Origin: Dysidea avara
Taxonomy: Eukaryota; Porifera; Demospongiae; Dictyoceratida; Dysideidae
Assembly: GCF_963678975.1 (NCBI RefSeq)
Contig: NC_089279.1
Span: 26,026,004 to 26,090,003 of the forward strand
DNA length: 64,000 bases
Reading direction: 5' to 3'
Part shown: piece after piece, positions 14,648 through 48,852 of the stretch
Numbering within the stretch: the stretch's first letter is position 1
Layout of the letters: every line of letters begins with the position of its first letter
Made by a program: the position numbers and the translations under genes
Notes under the pieces: model-generated
What the model saw: only the letters and a program-made list of their open reading frames with translations
What the model was told of the DNA's origin: nothing
The model's database searches: none

Positions 14648-14825
14648 AATTGTAATCATTGAAAAGAATATCATTGCTTGCTTTTAAGGAAGTTATTGTG
14701 ATACAGAGTATGTATAGCCTTTCAGCTATAAAGCTACATTGACACTTGTAGTTATAGAATGATTTATAATTTTTAAAAAGCTGTATAGTTCTACATAAAC
14801 ATGTTCTGAAGTGTTATACTGTAGG

Positions 14826-15833
14826 GCTCAGGTGGTGAGTGGAGTCCCCCAGGGGTCTGTTTTAGAGCCCTTGTTGTTTATATTATATGTTAATGACATC
14901 CCAGACCTTATTGAAAGTAATATAAGAATGTTTGCTGATGATACAAAAATTTATTCTGTTATTCAGAGCTTTGACGATCACCTTAGGCTGCAAAGTGATG
15001 TTGACCGATTGTTGCAGTGGTCTCACACATGGTTGCTTCGGTTCAATATAGCTAAATGTAAGCTGATGCGGATTGGTAACTCTGCTCCGTTCACCTACTC
15101 TATGCTGGACAGTTCCACCAACTTACCCTTTGAAATCACAGAAGTGCAAGAAGAAAAAGATCTTGGTATTGGTGCACTGAAGACTTGAAACCATCTCTAC
15201 AGTGTCGTAAGGCTGCAGCAAAAGCTATGCAAGTTCTTGGTTTGCTAAGAAGGTCCTTCAAACTTTTTTCTGTTGACTTGTTGACTTTTTTGTACAAAAT
15301 GTATGTCAGACCTCACTTGGAGTATTGCATCCAGGTCTGGAGCCCTTACTTGGCGAAAGATATTGATCTCCTAGAGAAAGTACAGAGACGTGCCACCAAG
15401 TTATTACCTAGTTTATTTGATTTACCATACGAAACTCATCTAGAGACTTGGTTTATATTCACTGTATTGTAGACGTCAAAGGGGAGATCTAATTGAGACC
15501 TACAAGATATTGAATGGTTACTATGACATCAACCCTACCTCATTTTTCACTTTGAGTAATACGGATACCACCAGAGGTCACCACCGTAAACTCTTTAAAT
15601 TTCGATCTCGGCTGCTAGTGAGGCATAATTTTTTTCACCAACAGAGTAATTAATTTGTGGAATTCTCTTCCAGCAGATGTTATTTCTGCACCAACCGTGG
15701 CATTGTTTAAGAAGAATCTTGATGATTTATGGAGAACAACAAGATATGGGCACTCTCAAAGGCCTGCGGCCTAGCTTGACAGTCTTGTACTGCCAAGCAA
15801 TTTTTGTCCATTAATAATAATAATAATAAAATA
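14826..15833 (+). mobile_element. CR1/L2-like LINE 3' fragment: reverse transcriptase end plus C-terminal region
   Basis: The frame shows RT motifs SGVPQGSVLEPLLF and the catalytic FADDTK, then CKLMRIGNS, KPSLQCRKAAAKAM, YVRPHLEYCIQVWSPYL and KVQRRATKL. Coding is broken by frameshifts near 15178 and 15450 and by a later stop. The end LWRTTRYGHSQRPAA is followed by a (TAA)n tail at about 15812-15830. It is 5'-truncated, as is usual for LINEs. The clade is inferred from the motif style and tail. Confidence 0.75.
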
Positions 15834-26176: not shown

Positions 26177-26198
26177 TGAAGTGTGTGTGTAGTGTGTG

Positions 26199-26274
<76 letters not shown>

Positions 26275-26400
26275 TGTGTGTGTAGTGTGTGTGTGTGTAG
26301 TGTGTGTGTAGTGTGTAGTGTGTGTGCGTGTGTGTGTGTGTGTGTGTGTGAGTGTGTGTGTTTGTGTAGTGTGTGTGTAGTGTGTGTGTGTGTGTGTTTG

Positions 26401-26456
<56 letters not shown>

Positions 26457-26489
26457 TGTGTGTGTGTTTGTAGTGTGTGTGTGTGTGTG

Positions 26490-26536
<47 letters not shown>

Positions 26537-26556
26537 TGTGTGTGTGTAGTGTGTGC
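26177..26556. repeat. Long (TG)n microsatellite, ~380 bp
   Basis: This is an almost continuous GT repeat with interspersed TAG and TTTG variants. Open frames across it on the minus strand (His-Thr repeats) are artefacts. Confidence 0.95.
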
Positions 26557-29017: not shown

Positions 29018-29187
29018 ATGGAAGAGCAACAACTATTAGAGCTTATCATTGGAAAGTTCTACGGGGTGATTGATGAAATAGCTTATGATTGTGAAACTAT
29101 TCTCAAAAGACTTCGTGATAGTGGCTTGATAAACGAACAGAATCTTCAGAGCATTGAAAACAAAACAGACGCCATTGATAAAAACAG
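29018..29187 (+). CDS. Exon 1 of the NLR gene: N-terminal CARD half
   Basis: It encodes MEEQQLLELIIGKFYG through LINEQNLQSIENKTDAIDKN and ends phase 2 at AG|GTAACT. Joined to exon 2 it continues R-FLVNALWKRI and DDQFHKLLTVF, completing a six-helix CARD pattern (LI-E--L--I followed by D----L---L--R). An upstream in-frame GTG would add residues but is not expected as a eukaryotic start. Confidence 0.75.
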
Positions 29188-32100
29188 GTAACTTATGATT
29201 TATAGCTATCGTAGCTACGCAAGGCGGCCGAAAATTTAGTAAAATTGACGAATTCACACTTCATCTGATTCGATGAAAATATAAAATTTTGATGAAAATC
29301 ATGCAAGCTAGGCATATAATTTTATGGCGATTTTAAATTTGTCAGTGCTTAAACCGATTCGTCAATCAGTTTTTCTGACCTCAAAATTCATGTCCTTTCG
29401 GCGCCGGTACAGTACGATCTCAGTATACACTTGTAAGTAGCGTAATACCTCCCTCGTATGTCAGTATTTGCACTCAGGCTATATGGCTCATGATCAGTAT
29501 ACGGCGTAGCCCAACGTCACTGAAAACTTTTTCCCGGGTTAGCGGATGCCGGATGGACTGCCCTTGCCACCACCCCCAGCACTCTATAATTGGCGTGTGC
29601 GCTGGCCGCCAACTAAGAGACAGAAGATTGGATGAAGTAGTCCCTGTGCCCACCAGCATATCGTAGTGAGATGGACCTGCACGGATGCACACTGTTGCCA
29701 GCGCAACAGAGAAAAGGACAGTGTGCATGTACCTTATCCAGGCCTTCGTCCAGACCAGAACAGACAAACGACACTTATCGTTTGCAGAGCCTGTTGCCGA
29801 CACTGCATGCATGAAAACGAATGTATAGCTATAGCTACGTTCGTACAGCCCCGTAATGCCAAGATCAATTTGCTAAATATACTTAGGCGCTGCATGATCA
29901 CAGTAGCCATTCCCTTCGCCGGCAGTATAGCTAACTACTGTAGTTCATAAAGATAATATGCATAGCTGCGCCAACATTGCCAGAAGGGATGGTAGATAAT
30001 CCATGCAAGACTGTAGAATGCTTGAGAATTGCAGTTCTGGCATTCTTGAGTGGATAAACAACACGATGGGGTGCATGATGTAACAATGTTGATCACCAAA
30101 ACTGAGCATTGCATCATTTAGGTTGTTTTTTAAACAATGCAATCATCACCACAGCTGAATTGCTGTAAACCACATGGGAAAACATTTGTGGCTTTCACAA
30201 CTATAGAGTTTTCATAAACAGGGGCGTCACTATTCAGTGGACTGGACTACTCGGACTGGATCCCTGTACTGGACTGGATCCCTGTACTGGACTAGTAATG
30301 GATTGGCATATTTTTGGCTTTTACACATTCTATGATTGGATTTACTGAGCCTCACTATATAATAGTTAAGAGCTCTTAGAAAAGCTGCATGCAACCCGCT
30401 AGTATAAATTCTGAATAATTTATGAGCAGATGTGTATATAACTGACAGCACTTCCTGGTGTTTGTAGTGCTGCAGGGTATGTGTCCTTGCAATTGACTGG
30501 TGATCAACTTGTCAGTATGTGAAGAATAACAATAGCAATTAGTCTTGTGCAGCCTGTATTTCAGTGCAGAGGCTAATCAATTAGAGATTATAAGCACCCT
30601 AACTGAAAAAAATAGTAACCTGGCACCATGTGAGACTCAATAGCTTGCTATATATACTCAAGCTTGCACTCTAAGAATGTCTCCAAGGATGTCATCACTA
30701 GTTAATACTGCTGTCACATTCCCTGTAATATTACTATACACCAGGGTAAGGAGTGAAGTGCTCTATAGTGGAATAACAAGCAGTAGCGAAATTATTAAAA
30801 GACAGTTTTTGCATATTCCATTGCTCATATTCAGCATTTAGTAGTAGGCTGCAGCTTTTCTAAGGGCCCTTAACTAGTGAGACTCAGTAAATCCAATCAT
30901 AGAATGTGCAAAGACCAGTCCAATGTAGTGTTCCAGTCCAGTATAGTCCAGCCAACTGAGCCATAAACAGTGACCATTTTCCTACTAACATTTTGTTGTT
31001 AGTGGTTTGCTTTGCAGCTGGAAAAAAATAGCTGCAGGGCCATGAAACTTCAGCTGCTTGTTGATTTGTATAACTATACTATGCAACTTATTCTTGGTCT
31101 TGAATTGGCTATTAGCTATTATACAGTAATGTAAAGAGCTAACTTACTCAACATAGCAATTTTCGTAGTCTTTTTCAATTGTGCGCAATTAAAAGTTTCA
31201 TTTTCTTGCATAGGAGCCTTTGATTTTTGCCTCAAGAACATATTGTCTAGTAACTGCTTTAGCTTAGAAGGACATAAACAGATTCCACACAAGTGCATGC
31301 ATACATGCACACACATACGTTTAAATTGATATTTAATAAAAAAGTCATCATAATTATTCATGCAGCCCTGTTGGTCATATATAGTGCTGTACACTAAATC
31401 ATTTATCTCCTTGTTTGAGCCTCATTCTTACCGTCACTAACAAGCTAAACAGCTACATTACATGAATTATGACTGTGCATCTAAAGTAACACAAATACAA
31501 AACTTTCTGCTAACTTAAGGGTCAATGAATACTATGTATATATAAGTTGTACATTATCAAGACACACGATAGCGTTTCGTGCAGCCAAATGCAGTCAGTG
31601 CAGGTGCCAAACAAACAAATTGTATTTTACGTGAAACTAAGAAAATGTTTTTTTTCACAATCTGTAGCTTGACAGTTTCTTAAACAGAGATTATCCAATT
31701 TTGTTGCACTTTCTAATCCAAATTTTAGCTCCACTTAGCCATCACTGATTTGCTGTATTGTAAGGCTGGCTTCTGGTTAACACACTACTATTGTGGGAAC
31801 ATACAAACCCTACTGATTTTATTTACCACACTTTACAGTAATTATTGTGTTACTACAGGTTTTTGGTGAATGCGCTATGGAAGAGAATACGTACTGATGA
31901 TCAGTTTCACAAGTTGCTGACGGTGTTTTCTTTGGAGGATGGTATTAGTGAAGTAGCTGAAAGTATGAAAGTAGTCTATTGTGTTTTAAAAAATGAGGAA
32001 AAGATAATGGAGGTTTTTAATTATAATGAACTCCTTACGTGTTTAAGAGAAAAAAAGTTTTTCACAAAGCGTGAAGAAATTGCTCTGTCAAAACAGAAAA

Positions 32101-34952
32101 AAGAAATCAAAGAGATCATAGAGATATTAAAGGACAAAGATCTAGATCTATTTAAAACCTTTTTATTGTGCTGTAAAAAGTTGAAACCAGATGTTTTAGT
32201 CACCACAATGGCCAGTTTAAGCGATAAAGGCCCAAGTTGTATATTTAGACAATACTTACAAAAGCGATGTACCAATGTCTCATTCACACAAATTTCAGAA
32301 GTGGATTTTAATCTTCCATTATCAGATGATATTAACATAGCACTAATACAAATCAGTGAAGAAGATCACCAAAAAAAGTCCAATTTCCTTGACCGCTACA
32401 GTGTACTGCTTAAGCAACAAGCTAACTATACTAGGGAACGTCTTAACTCATATTCTGACATTGTTGTTGAGAACTGTAGAGTAATTCTCATACAAGGATA
32501 TCCTGGAAGTGGCAAGACATTCTTGACTAAACAAATGTGTATGAAATGGGCTCAAGGTGAATTACTTAATAGATTTAATCATGTTATCTTTTTGGAACTA
32601 AGAGACAAAGAAGTAGCTACTGCAGAAACCTTTGATAAAATAATTCAATTGTATATGGGCCCTTTAGCTAAAGGAATTATTAAACAAATTTATGAAAGAA
32701 ATGGAAAGGGGATTTTAATTATTCTAGAGGGATGGGATGAGCTACCAGAAGGCAAAAGACACAGCAGTATATTCACACGTCTTATATCTGGCGACCTTCT
32801 TCCTGAAGTTGTGATTGTGATCACAAGTCGTCCGTCTGCCATTAAAAGTTTACAATATAAACATATTCAGCGTAGGATTGAACTTCTTGGATTTACTGAG
32901 GAGCAAGTAGAAAAAAACATAACATTTTACTTTCAAAAATTCACAAATGCTTCAGAACTAGTAAAGAAATTTTATTCTGAATTAAAACGCCTTCCACTTC
33001 TGAAATGTTCCATATTTGTGCCTATAAATCTCTGCATTGCTCTATACATTTTCAACACAAGTGATTATGAATTACCAAATACTTTTACAGATACACATAA
33101 AGAGTTAGTGCTGAATCAGTTAAGAAGGCATCAAGCTAGAAAGCCTGATAGTGAATCTATAAACACATTAGAAAATTTACCTGAAGAAGTTGATGATATG
33201 TTACTTAGATTAGGTAAAATGGCTTATGAACAATTGCAAAATAATCTAACTCTGGTATTCAGTGAAAAAATGATAAAAAAATACTGCTTTGATTCAAAAA
33301 ATGTGAACCTTGATAGTTTTGATGGGATGGGACTACTACAAGTAAGCAATCATAGACATTTTGTGTCTGTTATCAAAACATATGAATTCATTCATCGCAC
33401 TCTTCAGGAGCTACTTGCAGCTTGGTATTTGTCTCAACAAGGTGAATCAGCTCAGAAAAAGCAATTACAAAGACTGTTTAATAAGAATGAATTTGAAATG
33501 GTCTTGATATTCTACGGAGGTTTAACAAAGTTTAAATATGTTCCCTTAAAAGACTGCCTTGTAAAAACTTACTTGCTGCATATTAAAATGGCAAGCAACA
33601 GTGGTTTCAGTTGGTTCTTGAAGAATATAATACAAAATAAGTTTATTAGATTCCCTGGCGTGGGGGAAATAATTGACAAATATTGGTGTGGAAAACAATA
33701 TTCACATGATTTATCTTGCTGTATTTCTACAGAGTTTCAGACTACACTAATAGCAGCAGTTTTTGAAACACAAAATCCTCAGTTGTGTAAAGATATGTGT
33801 GAAAGCTACCTCTTTAATGGTGAAGTTTGCTGGTTCACTATTCCAGAATCTGCTGCTACACCTCATTTTCTTTCTGCATTATCCTATTGTATAGTACACA
33901 GTGGAAAGGAGTGGATGATTCAGTGTAGGAGTTTTGATGAAAATGGAGCCAATAACATATTAAAGTATTTGACTTGTTGTACAGGCAACAATTGCAGCAG
34001 CACTGATGGTTACATTTGTGTATTTGATACTGATTGTAGTCAGAGTCCAATCAATGGCATTCCAAAACTTGTTCATAATCATCACCACCTTCAGTGGTTA
34101 ATACTGTCAAACAGCAAACATGCAGATGATCAATTTGTAGCTGAAGTTACAGAAGCCCTTGAAAACAATACCTGTTTAAAAATGCTTCATTTAGTTGGTT
34201 GTAGTGTAACTAGTAATGGTCTCAGAGCTATCGCTATCATGCTAATGAAAAATAAAACCTTACAATGGATAGGCTTGGACAAGAACACATTGACACTAAC
34301 AGAAGGAGATATAATAATGTTATTGGAAATAATAGAAAACTATAACGATACAGTTTTTATGTTATTCATTGACACCCCTTTCTACACATCAGATAAAATT
34401 CAAGAAAAATTACAAAACCTTAATTTTACTAGACAGCAAAGAAAAGTACAAAATTTGAACCTCACTCTTTTAGATTGTTTCAAGTTCCATGAAACCTGCC
34501 AGCGAATAATTTCTAATGTGTCTTTTATGCAAAATCAGGTAAGTTTATAGCTCCCAATATAATAATGCATGCGCTTTCAAGAAGAACACAGTGAATTATA
34601 ATTATTTTTAATTTTAAATATTCAGGCACACCCAAGTATCACCTTTAAAGATGTACAGTCAAAACGGCCAGAAACTGTTTACTTTGGGGAGTATCCAGCT
34701 AGAATAGTGTGCCCTGAATGTGACAAAGAGATGACAACAAAGATAAAATACAAAGCTGGCTTGTTGACATGGGTTTTGGTGATGGTGCTTGGCTCTACAT
34801 GGTTAAGACTGTAAGTGATGTGATTTGTGCTATGTACTGTTATTTTCACTTACAGGTTTATGTGGTGGCCTCTCCGTTTGAAGCTGTGCAAAGATGTGTA
34901 CCATTTTTGTTCCTACTGTAATGCTCATGTTGGGGTTTACAACAGAATGTGA
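29018..34952 (+). CDS. NLR-like receptor: CARD(s)-NACHT-LRR-LITAF, four exons
   Basis: The exons are 29018-29187, 31859-34538, 34626-34810 and 34856-34952. The joins are phase 2, 0 and 2, all with GT-AG, and total 3132 nt (1043 residues plus TGA). The ATG has A at -3 and G at +4. A CARD-like helical domain (about 1-92) is split by intron 1; a second death-fold segment with LKDKDLDLFKTFL lies at about 107-165. NACHT starts near 265: Walker A GYPGSGKT (270-277), Walker B LIILEGWDE (343-351) and sensor TSRP (379-382); HRTLQELLAAWYLS marks the winged-helix part downstream. Ribonuclease-inhibitor-like LRRs (LQWLIL, LKMLHL, LQWIGL) lie at about 798-870. A LITAF domain ends the protein. NACHT proteins are NTP-driven cytosolic sensors and CARDs recruit partners. 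I infer an innate-immune sensor; the ligand is unknown. The NACHT signature residues are intact. Confidence 0.85.
30010..30215. repeat. Dispersed repeat, copy 1 (also 35255-35440 and 37605-37795)
   Basis: It shares TTCTTGAGTGGATAAACAAC, TGATGTAACAATGTTGATCA and AGCATTGCATCATTTA with the copy at 37605, and more loosely with the copy at 35255. The three copies lie within 8 kb, in and after the NLR gene. The type is unknown. Confidence 0.55.
30226..30972. mobile_element. Foldback element in NLR intron 1
   Basis: GTCACTATTCAGTGGACTGG on the left and TAGTCCAGCCAACTGAGCC...CAGTGAC on the right are inverted. Similarity continues inward, for example ACATTCTATGATTGGATTTA with its inverse near 30890 and AGAAAAGCTGC with GCAGCTTTTCT. 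The arms are about 170 bp and diverged. Confidence 0.55.
34626..34952 (+). CDS. Exons 3-4 of the NLR gene: LITAF domain
   Basis: The two exons (34626-34810 and 34856-34952) encode ARIVCPECDKEM, KYKAGLLTWVLVMVLGS, then LKLCKDVYHFCSYCNAHVG and a final VYNRM. This is the LITAF layout: a CPxC knuckle (residues about 979 and 982), a hydrophobic membrane-associating stretch, and a second HxCxxC knuckle (about 1030 and 1033) with the typical GxYxR-like end. LITAF-family proteins coordinate zinc and sit on the cytosolic face of late endosomes and lysosomes. The acceptor TTTTAAATATTCAG follows the CAG|GTAAGT donor of exon 2 by 87 bp and keeps phase 0. There is no independent ATG or promoter signal at its front, which supports fusion and argues against a separate gene. 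Confidence 0.8.
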
Positions 34953-42469: not shown

Positions 42470-44605
42470 AACACTCTACAAGGTGACTTCTTCTAGATGC
42501 TCTCTCTACAGGGTGAATTGTTTGTAGCTGAACGATCTACAAGGTAACTTCTTCTAGCTGACCTTTTTACAGGGTGAATTGTTTGTAGCTGAATTCAGTA
42601 CAGGTGATTTGTTTGCAGCTGAGCTCTTTACAGAATGGTTTCTTTGTAGCTGAACTCTCTAAAAGGTAACTGATCTTTCTACAGGACAATTTGTTTGTGA
42701 CAGAATTTTATACAGGGTGATTTCTTTGCAGCTGAACTCTCTACATGGTGGTTTCTTTGTAGCTGAACTCTCTACAAGGTAATTTCTTCTGATCTCTCTA
42801 CGGGGAGATTTGTTTGTAGCTGAACTATCGACAAGGTGACTTCTTCTAGCTGATCTCTCTACGGGTGATTTGTTCGTAGCTGAATTCTGTACACAGTGGC
42901 GGATCCAGGATGGGGCATTTGGGGCAAATGCCCCCCCCCCCCTTCAAGAAATTACATACAAGATCGAGATACTCTAATAGAGCAGTCAATTACTCTAATA
43001 AAGCAGTCACAATGTTCATGAGGCAGTGTAGCTTACCTATGAAGCTATAAATAGGATTTTATTTTACATAACAGACGTGATATAGTTGGTAAGGATAACT
43101 AGCTATTATTGTTGTGACCTTTTTTTTTTTTTTTTTGGTCTTCAACTGGTTTTCAGCAAGTTTTTTTGGTCTTCAACTGTTTTTCAGAAAGGTGCCCCCC
43201 CTCTTTCCAAACTCTGGATCCGCCCCTGGTACAGGTGATTTGTTTGCAGCTGAGCTCTTTAAAAAATGGTTTCTTTGTAGCTGAACTCTCTACAAGGTAA
43301 CTTCTTCTAACTGATCTTTCTACAGGGTGATTTGTTTGTAGCTGAACTATCTACAAGGTAATTTCTTCTAGCTGATCTCTCTACAGGGTGATTTGTTCGT
43401 AGCTGAATTCTGTACAGGTGATTTGTTTGCAGCTGAGCTCTTTACAGAATGGTTTCTTTGTAGCTAAACTCTCTACAAGGTAACTTTTCTAGCTGATGTC
43501 TCTACAAGGTGACTAGTTTGTAGCTGAACTCTCTACATGGTGGTTTCTTTGTAACTGAACTTTCTACAAGGTGACTTCTTCTAACTGATCTTTCTACAGG
43601 GTGATTTGTTTGTAGCTGAACTCTCTACAAGGTAACTTCTTCTAGCTGATCTCTCTACAGGGTGATTTGTTTGTAGCTGAGCTATCTACAAGATAGCTTC
43701 TTCTAGCTGATCTCTCTACAGGGTGATTTGTTTGTAGCTGAGCTATCTACAAGATAGCTTCTTCTAGCTGATCTCTCTACAGGGTGATTTGTTTGTAGCT
43801 GAATTATGTATAGGTGATTTATTTGCAGCTGAACTCTTTACAGAATGGTTTCTTTGTAGCTGAACTCTCTACAAGGTAACTTCTTCTAGCTGATGTCTTT
43901 ACAGGGTCACTAGTTTGTAGCTGAATTCTCTACATGGTGGTTTCTTTGTAACTGAACTCTCTACAAGGTAACTTCTTCTAGCTGATCTTTCTACAGGGTG
44001 ATTTGTTTGTAGCTGAACTCTCTACAAGTGATTTGTTTGCAGCTGAGCTCTTTAATGAATGGTTTCTTTGTAGCTGAACTCTATACAAGGTACCTTCTTC
44101 TAGCTGATCTTTCTACAGGGCGATTTGTTTGAAGCTGAACTCTCTACAAGGTAACTTCTTCTAGCTGATGTCTCTACAAGGTCACTAGTTTGTAGCTGAG
44201 CTCTCTACATGGTGGTTTCTTTGTAACTGAACTCTCTACAAGATGACTTCTTCTAGCTGATCTTTCTACAGGGTGATTTGTTTAAAGCTGAACTCTCTAC
44301 AAGGTAACTTCTTCAAGCTAATCTCTCCACAGGGAGATTTGTTTGTAGCTGAATTCTCTGCAAGGTAACTTCTTCTATTGATCTCTCTACAGGGCGATTT
44401 GTTTGTAGCTGAACTCTTTACATGGTGGTTTCTTTTTAGCTGAACTCTACAAGGTGATTTCTTATAGCTGAACTATCTCTTTCCATAGTTGCATGAACTC
44501 CCTACAAGCTAACTTCTTCTAGCTGATCTCTCTACAGGGTGACTTGTGTGTAGCTGATCTCTATACAGATTTCTTGTTTCTAGCTAATCTCTTGAATTCT
44601 CTTCA
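42470..44605. repeat. Right tandem array, ~61-bp unit of two ~30-bp halves
   Basis: Repeats of TAGCTGAACTCTCTACAAGG and TAACTTCTTC alternate with TAGCTGATCTCTCTACAGGG and TGATTTGTTTG. The array spans about 2.1 kb and is interrupted by the MITE at 42894-43228. Open frames are short and not protein-like. Confidence 0.9.
42894..43228. mobile_element. CAGTGGCGGATCCAG MITE in the tandem array, 5-bp TSD GTACA
   Basis: The ends CAGTGGCGGATCCAGG and CTCTGGATCCGCCCCTG are inverted. GTACA lies at 42889-42893 and 43229-43233. Array units without the insertion read CTGAATTCTGTACAGGTGAT (for example near 43405), giving the exact empty site. The interior is the inverse of 8817-9132. Confidence 0.9.
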
Positions 44606-47179: not shown

Positions 47180-48441
47180 CTATTGGATGATTGACAGGAG
47201 CCATTCATTAGCAGTCTTACTGTTCTGTAAAGTTGCGTTCCAGTTATCCCGCAGCTTCCAGGTGTTGTCTTTAGTCATTTGGATTTTTTTATTATTCCCG
47301 GACTTGTGGAAATAAGGATGCCATACATAGGTGATTTCCTTTAAATCATCAGTGCAGTGACGACAAATCACACTATTTGGCAGCAGTGTAACTTGCAGTG
47401 ATACAGGGTTACTAGTGATTCCTTGATAATATTGATATGCCTCAGTATTTAACGGCTTAAACTTTATCTCCATATAATAGAATACATAATTCACAGCCAG
47501 CTGATCATCAGTAGTCTCAGTCTTTATCTTCATCATACGCCAGAAATACTCTGCATATCAAAAAAGCATTAACTACACATTATTTCTGTTATTGCAGTAC
47601 TAGAAATGACATTGGTCATTTCATAACTAATTATAGTTTTTGGCTATATAATCAGAGGATTAGATCCTGTAAAAATTTTAAGTAACAGATAGCCAATCTA
47701 CCTTCAAAAAATGTAGGCTGATTTTTGTTTCTCGTTTCTAGTACTGCATAGCATAGTACAGCTAGGTGGTGTATATATCGTGTATGTAGGCTTACCTGTG
47801 GCAGGGGTGGCTTTAAATAAAGCTACACCCATACACAATGATGTGTTCCACATTCTATGCAAAGTACCTGGATAGAAACCAGTTGATGCTATGATATCAC
47901 TGTTGTCAAAGTAGTCTAGCAGTGACTGTATATCCTTCAGAATCAAGGCATCACTGTCCATAATTAACACATTGTATTTCCAGCTGTTTAGTAATCTGAT
48001 CACTGTCAACCTTGTTATCCATACAGCAGAAAAATGTCTAGATCTAAAATCAGGTTGCATAATGGAATATCGTGGAATATAAACTGACTGAAAACCTTTA
48101 TTTGTTAATGTTTGATGGGTAGCAATATCAAGTGACATTACCAAGAGATTCTTTACTGGTAAAGATGCTTGTAAAACAGCATAAACAAGCCAGTTGGCTA
48201 GTGCACCCAGGTATTTTTCACTACATACTACAAGTGTAATTTGTGGTCCTGACAGCCGAGTTGCTTGTCGAAGATCTCGCACCCAACTGGAGTTAGCTGT
48301 CACGGGCAGAGTATGTGAAGGAAATATAGTTAACCAGTCGGCACCTTGATTAGCTATCACTGATGGAATGTTTGCAATTGAATTTTCAATTGGACTCATT
48401 TGTAAAGCTGTAGTCGAGGCTTCATCTTGGCTCATCACCAC
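47180..48441 (-). CDS. Nucleotide-diphospho-sugar glycosyltransferase (DxD), last two exons
   Basis: Exon 48441-47796 ends phase 1 at ACAG|GTAAG. Exon 47550-47180 begins after TTTTTTGATATGCAG in the matching phase and ends with TAG. The intron is 245 bp. Together they encode 338 residues. Visible features are LVVCSEKYLGALANWLVYAV at the nucleotide-binding end, QSVYIPRYS, RLLNSWKYNVLIMDSDALIL with the DxD-type DSD (about residues 162-164 of the visible part), then LHRMWNTSLCMGVALFKATP and a conserved-looking EYFWRMMKIKTETTDDQLAV in exon 2. This fits the Nucleotid_trans/GT77-like family, Golgi type II enzymes using Mn-bound nucleotide sugars. The signal-anchor exon is missing: an acceptor (CATTCACAG) precedes the first visible exon, and I could not find the upstream exon. 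Confidence 0.8.
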
Positions 48442-48852
48442 CTGTGAATGAACAAGCAGTGCATGATAATCCATCAGCTAGATCTGGAGTTTTTAGCTTT
48501 ATATAATACACAATAATGATGTCGCACTATTTTCTGTTACTAGCTTGATTTTTGTTTATGCAAATGAAAGTTTCTTATTGCGATACATATACAAACAATT
48601 ATATATAATGGTACAATTTCAAATTATAGGGTAAAAATAATTATAAAAATATAAAAGGACGGGAATAGACATCATTAAAAACAAAAGAAACAAGAGTCAA
48701 CCAAGTCAGCATGTTACACTGTTACAGAACTGCAATTGAGCATGTCAAAACCTGTCTATCACACACATATGCACATGCCCGCACACATACTATTCACAAA
48801 TGACGTTTCTTATTAAATATACCTAACAGATAACTTGCATTATTATTATAAG
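48442..48852. other. Probable upstream intron of the glycosyltransferase gene
   Basis: AT-rich sequence without recognisable exons lies on the 5' side of the visible gene. Confidence 0.35.

What the first reader, a model, noticed from the sequence alone, without database searches (positions are those of the whole stretch)
29018..34952. An NLR with a C-terminal LITAF domain: CARD(-CARD)-NACHT-LRR-LITAF in one gene
Seen: four exons joined in phases 2, 0 and 2 give one 1043-residue frame with an intact Walker A, Walker B and sensor motif, followed without a new start by both LITAF cysteine knuckles and the hydrophobic segment between them. Known: LITAF domains bind zinc and attach proteins to late endosome/lysosome membranes; NLRs sense cytosolic signals and CARDs recruit signalling partners. 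I do not recall an NLR ending in LITAF. Inference: the domain could tether the sensor to endolysosomal membranes, placing it where phagocytosed microbes or membrane damage appear, or couple it to trafficking.
Basis: partly seen in the sequence, partly recalled or inferred. Interest (0 to 1): 0.88.

Follow-up and report, generated by a model that had tools for sequence, protein, structure and literature searches.

The report
Sponge immune sensors with membrane anchor
In a marine sponge, a whole family of NOD2-like immune sensor genes ends in a LITAF domain, a zinc-stabilised tail that in other proteins sits in membranes, so these sensors are probably fixed to a cell membrane instead of floating free in the cell.

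Summary
Confirmed. The four-exon gene at 29018-34952 encodes 1043 residues with strong NACHT and LITAF domains. It is not a one-off: in this genome (Dysidea avara) 28 of 37 LITAF loci lie downstream, same strand, of a close relative of this NLR exon, mostly in an array on C6. A phase-0 splice donor ends the NLR exon in 20 of 20 copies tested (one decayed copy left out lacks it). The zinc cysteines are kept in 25 of 25 aligned copies, and both parts are under purifying selection with matching divergence. Of seven D. avara RefSeq relatives listed, four carry NACHT and LITAF in one chain and three lack LITAF. The body is NOD2-like. Best reading: a NOD2-like sensor tethered to cytosolic membrane faces by a LITAF anchor, perhaps released by alternative splicing. 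Endolysosomal targeting is not supported: the PPxY/PTAP arm that steers LITAF to endosomes is absent. LITAF is named once, in a figure legend, in a 2026 D. avara NLR paper; my searches found no account of the family or its mechanism.

The parts
29018..29187 (+). Exon 1: start codon and first half of CARD 1 (residues 1-57, last codon split, phase 2)
   Evidence: Splice reconstruction; N-termini of the same type in RefSeq relatives P0007, P0010, P0019, P0027, P0030 and in locus L033; not found by tblastn in the other loci
31859..34538 (+). Exon 2: rest of CARD 1, CARD 2, NACHT, winged helix, LRR (residues 57-950), ends CAG|GTAAGT in phase 0
   Evidence: phase-0 donor at or near the homologous place in 20 of 20 copies tested
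31986..32192 (+). CARD 2 (residues 100-168)
   Evidence: Pfam CARD 20.2 bits, below the 23.9 cut-off here; over the cut-off in P0027 and P0030, 2 of 7 relatives scanned
32478..32933 (+). NACHT domain (residues 264-415)
   Evidence: Pfam E 5.9e-20
32496..32519 (+). Walker A GYPGSGKT (residues 270-277)
   Evidence: Sequence; G, P, G, G, K and T invariant in 53 aligned relatives
32712..32741 (+). Walker B region ILIILEGWDE (residues 342-351)
   Evidence: Sequence; GWDEL invariant in 53 aligned relatives
33786..34538 (+). LRR region, ribonuclease-inhibitor type (about residues 700-950, edges approximate)
34539..34625 (+). Intron 2, 87 bases; in-frame stop 9 bases after the donor if not spliced
34626..34810 (+). 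Exon 3: linker and first half of the LITAF domain with CPEC knuckle (residues 951-1012)
34811..34855 (+). Intron 3, 45 bases, phase 2, inside the LITAF domain; phase 2 in 26 of 28 NLR-linked copies parsed and in the stand-alone LITAF locus at C13:16.46 Mb
34856..34952 (+). Exon 4: end of hydrophobic segment, KDVYHFCSYC knuckle, stop
34692..34943 (+). LITAF domain footprint (residues 973-1041, spliced)
   Evidence: Pfam E 3.2e-18; own-genome PF10601 hit at the same bases

Best explanation
The gene encodes a NOD2-like NLR (CARD-CARD-NACHT-winged helix-LRR) with a C-terminal LITAF domain added by splicing on two extra exons. Shown by sequence: the fusion, its recurrence in at least 28 loci of one genome, conserved exon phases, conserved zinc cysteines and hydrophobic segment, and purifying selection. 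Inferred: the LITAF domain inserts a hydrophobic helix in-plane into the cytosolic face of a membrane (PE-rich membranes by analogy), so the sensor rests there with CARDs, NACHT and LRR in the cytosol. When the NACHT domains oligomerise, CARDs cluster on that membrane and recruit a CARD partner, doing by domain fusion what S-acylation does for NOD2. Alternative acceptor use or failure of the exon 2-3 splice would give a soluble form. The membrane is more likely plasma or general cytosol-facing membrane than specifically endolysosome.
For: Spliced frame and Pfam. 28 of 37 LITAF loci paired with an NLR exon, same strand. Phase-0 donor in 20 of 20 copies tested, best or tied-best of all phases in 19, set by hand in L033. 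RefSeq P0007, P0009, P0027 and P0030 contain NACHT and LITAF in one chain; compared by eye, their exon 3-4 sequences equal those I predicted for L041, L035, L022 and L018, and the exon 2-3 join equals my prediction in the two copies where I held both sides, L041 and L035. dN/dS median 0.22 for exon 2 and 0.32 for LITAF over 87 of 105 pairs (filter: exon-2 dS under 1.5, LITAF dS defined and over 0.05); Mantel r 0.82, 0 of 5000 permutations as high, n=15. CxxC...CxxC in 25 of 25 aligned copies with a hydrophobic 19-mer of mean 1.74-3.03. NOD2 is the best PDB relative by sequence (5irm, E 9e-16) and first by Foldseek. LITAF is a zinc-binding monotopic membrane protein (PMC5095921 abstract; PMC5142333 abstract); AtGILP needs its LITAF domain for the plasma membrane (PMC3079718 abstract and one section). 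NOD2 needs membrane attachment by S-acylation (PMC12005342, start of abstract in listing).
Against: No RNA reads, localisation or binding data. The window's own CARD and LRR score below Pfam cut-offs, and only 2 of 7 relatives scanned pass the CARD cut-off. The hydrophobic segment of the window copy is the weakest of 25 (1.74) and has an arginine in it. The LITAF part of the model has low confidence (pLDDT 40-75 by ten-residue block). Of seven D. avara-named RefSeq entries among the 120 proteins listed, three (P0002, P0010, P0019, all isoform X2) show no LITAF. L049, a decayed copy, shows no donor near the end of the NLR match. No bioinformatic result shows which membrane, or any membrane.
Confidence: 0.7

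Rival explanations
1. The LITAF tail is an integrated decoy or adaptor: it baits microbial factors that target host LITAF/ESCRT trafficking, or recruits trafficking partners, and membrane attachment is secondary.
For: Plant NLRs carry integrated decoys (recalled, not searched here). D. avara has nine LITAF loci without an NLR partner that could be the guarded host protein, one with the same intron phase and position. LITAF evolves a little faster than the NLR exon (median dN/dS 0.32 against 0.22).
Against: All four zinc cysteines and a hydrophobic segment are kept in 25 of 25 aligned copies, as an anchor needs; average selection is purifying, not diversifying. The partner-binding motifs described for LITAF lie in the proline-rich arm, and are absent in the five proteins checked.
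Confidence: 0.12
2. LITAF is an output domain: ring assembly of the NLR clusters LITAF wedges that bend or break the membrane, so the receptor is its own executioner.
For: LITAF and CDIP1 are described as membrane-curvature proteins (PMC8353527, start of abstract in listing) and CDIP1 as pro-apoptotic (PMC11203953 and PMC7865452, starts of abstracts in listing). NACHT and Walker motifs are intact, so oligomerisation is plausible.
Against: The N-terminal CARDs already supply a canonical output. That LITAF permeabilises membranes is not known to me (recall; not searched).
Confidence: 0.08
3. Two neighbouring genes: an NLR and a stand-alone LITAF gene, duplicated together, with no real fusion transcript.
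For: Some copies have introns of about 5-8 kb between NLR and LITAF exons, enough for a promoter; 19 of 29 parsed LITAF exon-3 rows have an in-frame Met upstream of the CxxC; three RefSeq entries lack LITAF.
Against: Intron of 87 bases and no in-frame Met in the window copy; phase-0 donor in 20 of 20 copies tested, with the in-frame stop only after the donor; RefSeq single-chain models at four loci.
Confidence: 0.04

Closest known systems
NOD2 (rabbit 5irm/5irn; NLRC class)
   Same: NACHT, winged helix and LRR; best PDB hit of the paralogue P0007 by sequence, E 9e-16, and Foldseek rank 1; two N-terminal CARDs (recalled for NOD2)
   Different: No LITAF; NOD2 reaches membranes by S-acylation (PMC12005342, abstract start); ligand unknown here
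RefSeq 'protein NLRC3-like' of Dysidea avara (P0007, P0009, P0027, P0030)
   Same: Same family, NACHT and LITAF in one chain
   Different: Paralogues on C6 and C9, 61-66% identical over residues 220-720; the name does not mention LITAF
LITAF / CDIP1
   Same: Two CxxC knuckles around a hydrophobic segment
   Different: The proline-rich arm, conserved across eukaryotes except apicomplexans (PMC5142333, section read), is replaced by an NLR
Arabidopsis GILP
   Same: LITAF domain as membrane anchor tied to pathogen-induced cell death (PMC3079718, abstract and one section)
   Different: Proposed as an anchor for partners, not fused to an NLR
Membrane-bound NLRs of Amphimedon and D. avara
   Same: NLR architectures with predicted transmembrane domains (PMC12909245, section read)
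   Different: The text there speaks of transmembrane domains; LITAF is a monotopic, non-spanning anchor
Sponge-like NLR group B (P0032-P0053, source species not given)
   Same: 45-49% identical over residues 220-720
   Different: 20 of 22 end where the D. avara exon has its donor: no sign of LITAF

Membership tests
NLR (bona fide, NACHT + LRR) | NACHT domain with Walker A and B | tested here: met
   Pfam E 5.9e-20; motif residues invariant in 53 relatives
NLR (bona fide, NACHT + LRR) | C-terminal LRR | tested here: met
   Window LRR_6 only E 0.12; met through relatives: P0029 LRR_6 26.4 bits over cut-off 23.4, P0007 to RNase inhibitor E 3.4e-6, fold match through the LRR
NLRC / NOD2-like | N-terminal CARD(s) | tested here: inconclusive
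   Window 20.2 bits in two stretches, below cut-off 23.9; 2 of 7 relatives over the cut-off (P0027 28.3, P0030 28.7, two stretches each), 4 below, 1 without a listed match
NLRC / NOD2-like | NOD2-type winged helix (PF17779) | tested here: met
   25.8 bits over cut-off 23.1 in the window; among 7 relatives, 6 match below the cut-off and 1 has no listed match
LITAF domain | Two CxxC pairs around a hydrophobic segment | tested here: met
   PF10601 66.1 bits, cut-off 23.8; 25 of 25 aligned copies (L032, L046, L049 dropped before the count)
LITAF/CDIP1 protein family | N-terminal proline-rich arm with PPxY / P(S/T)AP | tested here: not met
   No such motif in the five proteins checked; so it carries the domain but is not filed as a LITAF/CDIP1 family member
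LITAF domain | Zinc binding and monotopic membrane insertion | not testable with these tools
   Needs biochemistry and microscopy

The most novel reading that the evidence does not exclude
NLR-LITAF is a lineage-specific class of membrane-resident inflammasome with a splice switch: including the LITAF exons gives a resting sensor on a membrane, skipping or mis-splicing them gives a soluble one, and on activation NACHT ring assembly packs many LITAF wedges on one patch of membrane, bending or breaking it while CARDs signal.
Probability: 0.12. Interest if true: 0.9.

Novelty: new variant of a known kind. Interest (0 to 1): 0.62.

Why it matters
[quoted passage not shown] Here evolution appears to have built the membrane address into the receptor, in a tandemly expanded family of one of the earliest-branching animal groups, and RefSeq isoforms suggest the anchor can be spliced out. 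It gives a direct test: swap, remove or mutate a 93-residue tail and see whether sensing needs the membrane. It also departs from the pattern that LITAF domains are tied to a proline-rich arm across eukaryotes.

Tried and rejected
Chance join or separate LITAF gene: rejected as above. The 'no start codon in exon 3' argument is sound for the window copy but not general: 19 of 29 parsed rows do have an in-frame Met upstream of the CxxC, so I do not lean on it for the family.

Limits of the splice tests. In one search I looked for phase-0 donors near the end of the NLR match and listed the best donors of any phase beside them; the phase-0 one was best or tied-best in 19 of 20, and L033 was set by hand. 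Two held copies were not: L032 shows the same donor as L031 and L049 shows none. The exon-3 parser assumed a phase-0 acceptor, so that phase is not an independent result; the phase of intron 3 was left free. It took a non-standard donor in L038. L051 was re-parsed by hand; L046 and L049 did not give phase 2.

Rows dropped: for selection and Mantel tests I kept 15 of the 22 copies with NLR sequence in hand and left out L032, L036, L042, L045, L046, L048 and L049 (stops, frameshifts or large missing parts); L038 and L039, held only in part, were kept there and left out of the tree and of the domain identities (13 copies). L032, L046 and L049 were dropped before the count of 25 aligned LITAF copies.

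Single origin of the fusion: not resolved. The tree of 48 rows puts the D. avara LITAF copies other than L051 together with group A at 100/100, but the C13 copy (L051, with LITAF) sits on a long branch in an unresolved fork with groups B and C. One gain in this clade, or an older gain with losses, both remain open. The LITAF label needs 8 changes on that tree, mostly because group A rows, whose downstream exons I could not see, are mixed among the LITAF copies.

Spread to other species: the protein search over LITAF words found nothing with the window query and only P0007 and P0009 with the P0007 query, although P0027 and P0030 also have LITAF, so that search is not sensitive and its silence means nothing. 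Of the nine group A rows in the tree (contigs of jgi or ena, no species given), seven end in or near the read-through 'VS' of a GTAAGT-type donor, which hints at the same structure; their LITAF exons were not seen, and some may be D. avara copies.

The PDB sequence search with the LITAF tail alone gave no hit. Rfam and tRNA scans of the window gave nothing. The LITAF part of the fold was not searched on its own, so its structural match is untested.
Full report
What was checked. Pfam finds NACHT (E 5.9e-20), LITAF (E 3.2e-18) and the NOD2 winged helix (E 1.1e-5). CARD scores below its cut-off and LRR only E 0.12. A tblastn of the protein against the 64-kb window finds no second copy; the only other match is a 25-residue one at E 0.8.

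Where it is. The window is C8:26026004-26090003 of a 550.8-Mb assembly in 108 contigs. The protein search names paralogues as Dysidea avara; two contig lengths given there equal those of C3 and C9 in this assembly, while that of the C6 paralogues differs slightly (40518090 against 40516720). So the organism is D. avara, a demosponge.

It is a family. A six-frame search with the LITAF profile gives 54 matches, which I group by position into 37 loci. I fetched about 10 kb around each of the 20 loci on C6: 20 of 20 have a relative of this NLR exon upstream on the same strand. A search with the window's NLR exon adds seven partners, on C3, C5, C13:13.69 Mb and four on C9, at gaps of about 1.0 to 5.7 kb. 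With the window that makes 28 of 37 LITAF loci. The other nine (eight on C13, one on C12) have no such partner. Every row at 47% identity or more belongs to one of these LITAF-linked loci; the next best by E-value, on C12:18.49 Mb at 39%, has no LITAF match near it. Nineteen LITAF loci lie within C6:27.13-27.86 Mb. These searches score only their best candidates, so counts are lower bounds.

The gene structure is conserved. At the end of the NLR exon, 20 of 20 copies tested have a phase-0 GT donor at or near the same place, best or tied-best of all phases in 19 (L033 set by hand). Of two held copies not in that test, L032 has the donor and the decayed L049 does not. The LITAF exon pair was parsed in 29 rows, 28 of them NLR-linked and one stand-alone. 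The parser assumed a phase-0 acceptor; the phase of the intron inside the LITAF domain was free, and is 2 in 26 of 28 NLR-linked rows (one re-parsed by hand) and in the stand-alone locus at C13:16.46 Mb, whose exon begins PPQVTVVTQPATVVVP. The donor of the fused domain was therefore probably an ordinary LITAF gene of this kind (inference). Introns between NLR and LITAF range from 87 bases in the window to 7.9 kb in the copies measured.

Selection. For 15 of 22 held copies, dN/dS has a median of 0.22 for the NLR exon and 0.32 for LITAF over 87 of 105 pairs (exon-2 dS under 1.5, LITAF dS defined and over 0.05); protein distances of the two parts correlate (Mantel r 0.82, 0 of 5000 permutations as high). 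One close pair, L037-L050, has a LITAF dN/dS of 0.73 on few changes. Mean pairwise identity among 13 copies is 0.69 for NACHT, 0.58 for the LITAF domain, 0.52 for the C-terminal LRR and 0.49-0.50 for the CARD parts. All 25 aligned family members keep both CxxC pairs and a hydrophobic stretch; L042 is altered just after the second pair.

Independent gene models. Of seven D. avara-named RefSeq entries among the 120 proteins listed (208 found), P0007 (1052 residues), P0009, P0027 and P0030 carry PF05729 and PF10601 in one chain. Compared by eye, their LITAF exons equal my predictions for L041, L035, L022 and L018, and the exon 2-3 join equals my prediction in L041 and L035, where I held both sides. 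P0002, P0010 and P0019, all labelled isoform X2, show no LITAF; P0002 is also cut short within the LRR region. By my reading, P0019 uses an AG two bases downstream of the in-frame acceptor and runs out of frame. Such models usually rest on RNA-seq (recalled), but I could not see that support. If real, the anchor is optional.

How it probably works. LITAF and CDIP1 are described as monotopic membrane proteins, LITAF with zinc and with both ends cytosolic (PMC5095921, abstract). LITAF has an in-plane helical anchor and binds PE head groups (PMC5142333, abstract). NOD2 is nominally soluble but is brought to plasma membrane and endosomes by S-acylation, and membrane attachment is needed for its function (PMC12005342, start of abstract in listing). 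I infer that NLR-LITAF proteins have this membrane address built in.

Evolution. Of 22 relatives in group B (P0032-P0053, 45-49% identical over residues 220-720, source species not given), 20 end where the D. avara exon has its donor. This fits LITAF exons captured downstream of an older NLR, but the tree does not settle whether that happened once.

What is known. The full-text searches LITAF+NACHT+sponge (2 papers), NLR+'LITAF domain' (2), LITAF+NACHT (12, 11 listed) and 'LITAF domain' with fusion terms (245, 8 listed), judged by titles and abstract starts, gave one relevant paper: PMC12909245 on D. avara NLRs. Its main text holds the word Litaf once, in the legend of Figure 2A among NLR domain abbreviations; sections 3.3, 4.2 and 4.4 were read and do not discuss it; the rest was seen only as abstract and passages. 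Figures and supplements were not available, so the number and type of genes drawn there is unknown. It does say that transmembrane domains occur in D. avara NLRs, suggesting membrane-bound forms. PMC5142333 states that the proline-rich arm plus LITAF layout holds across eukaryotes except apicomplexans, so an NLR in place of the arm is a real departure. I rate this a new variant of a known kind, not wholly unreported.

Noticed in passing
G000:C6:27219329-27233413: One NLR-LITAF copy has its NLR exon split: the first 294 residues lie about 7 kb away from the rest on the same strand, as if an insertion had entered the exon.
   Followed up: no
L036, L046, L048, L049 (C6): Several cluster copies carry premature stops or frameshifts in the NLR exon (one stop in L036 and L046, many in L049), so the array contains decaying copies.
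   Followed up: partly
L037 and L050, exon 3: The linker between LRR and LITAF is about 41 residues longer than in the window and repeats a serine/threonine-rich SPSS-type unit, which most other aligned copies have once.
   Followed up: no
L031 and L032 (C6:27.33 and 27.29 Mb): Two loci encode identical predicted LITAF tails, but the NLR exon of L032 is found only in pieces: probably a recent duplicate.
   Followed up: no
G000:C13:18155299-18217534: Six LITAF matches in 62 kb without an NLR partner; each domain is one open stretch without stops, not split as in the NLR-linked copies.
   Followed up: no
window 47707-48477 (-): Open frame matching nucleotide-diphospho-sugar transferase (PF03407, E 2.6e-13), on the opposite strand from the NLR.
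   Followed up: partly
window 14799-15185 (+): Reverse transcriptase fragment (PF00078, E 2.3e-11), probably a retroelement remnant.
   Followed up: partly
window 43230-44592 and 26181-26555: A 1.3-kb tandem array of about 61-base units and a 375-base GT microsatellite.
   Followed up: no
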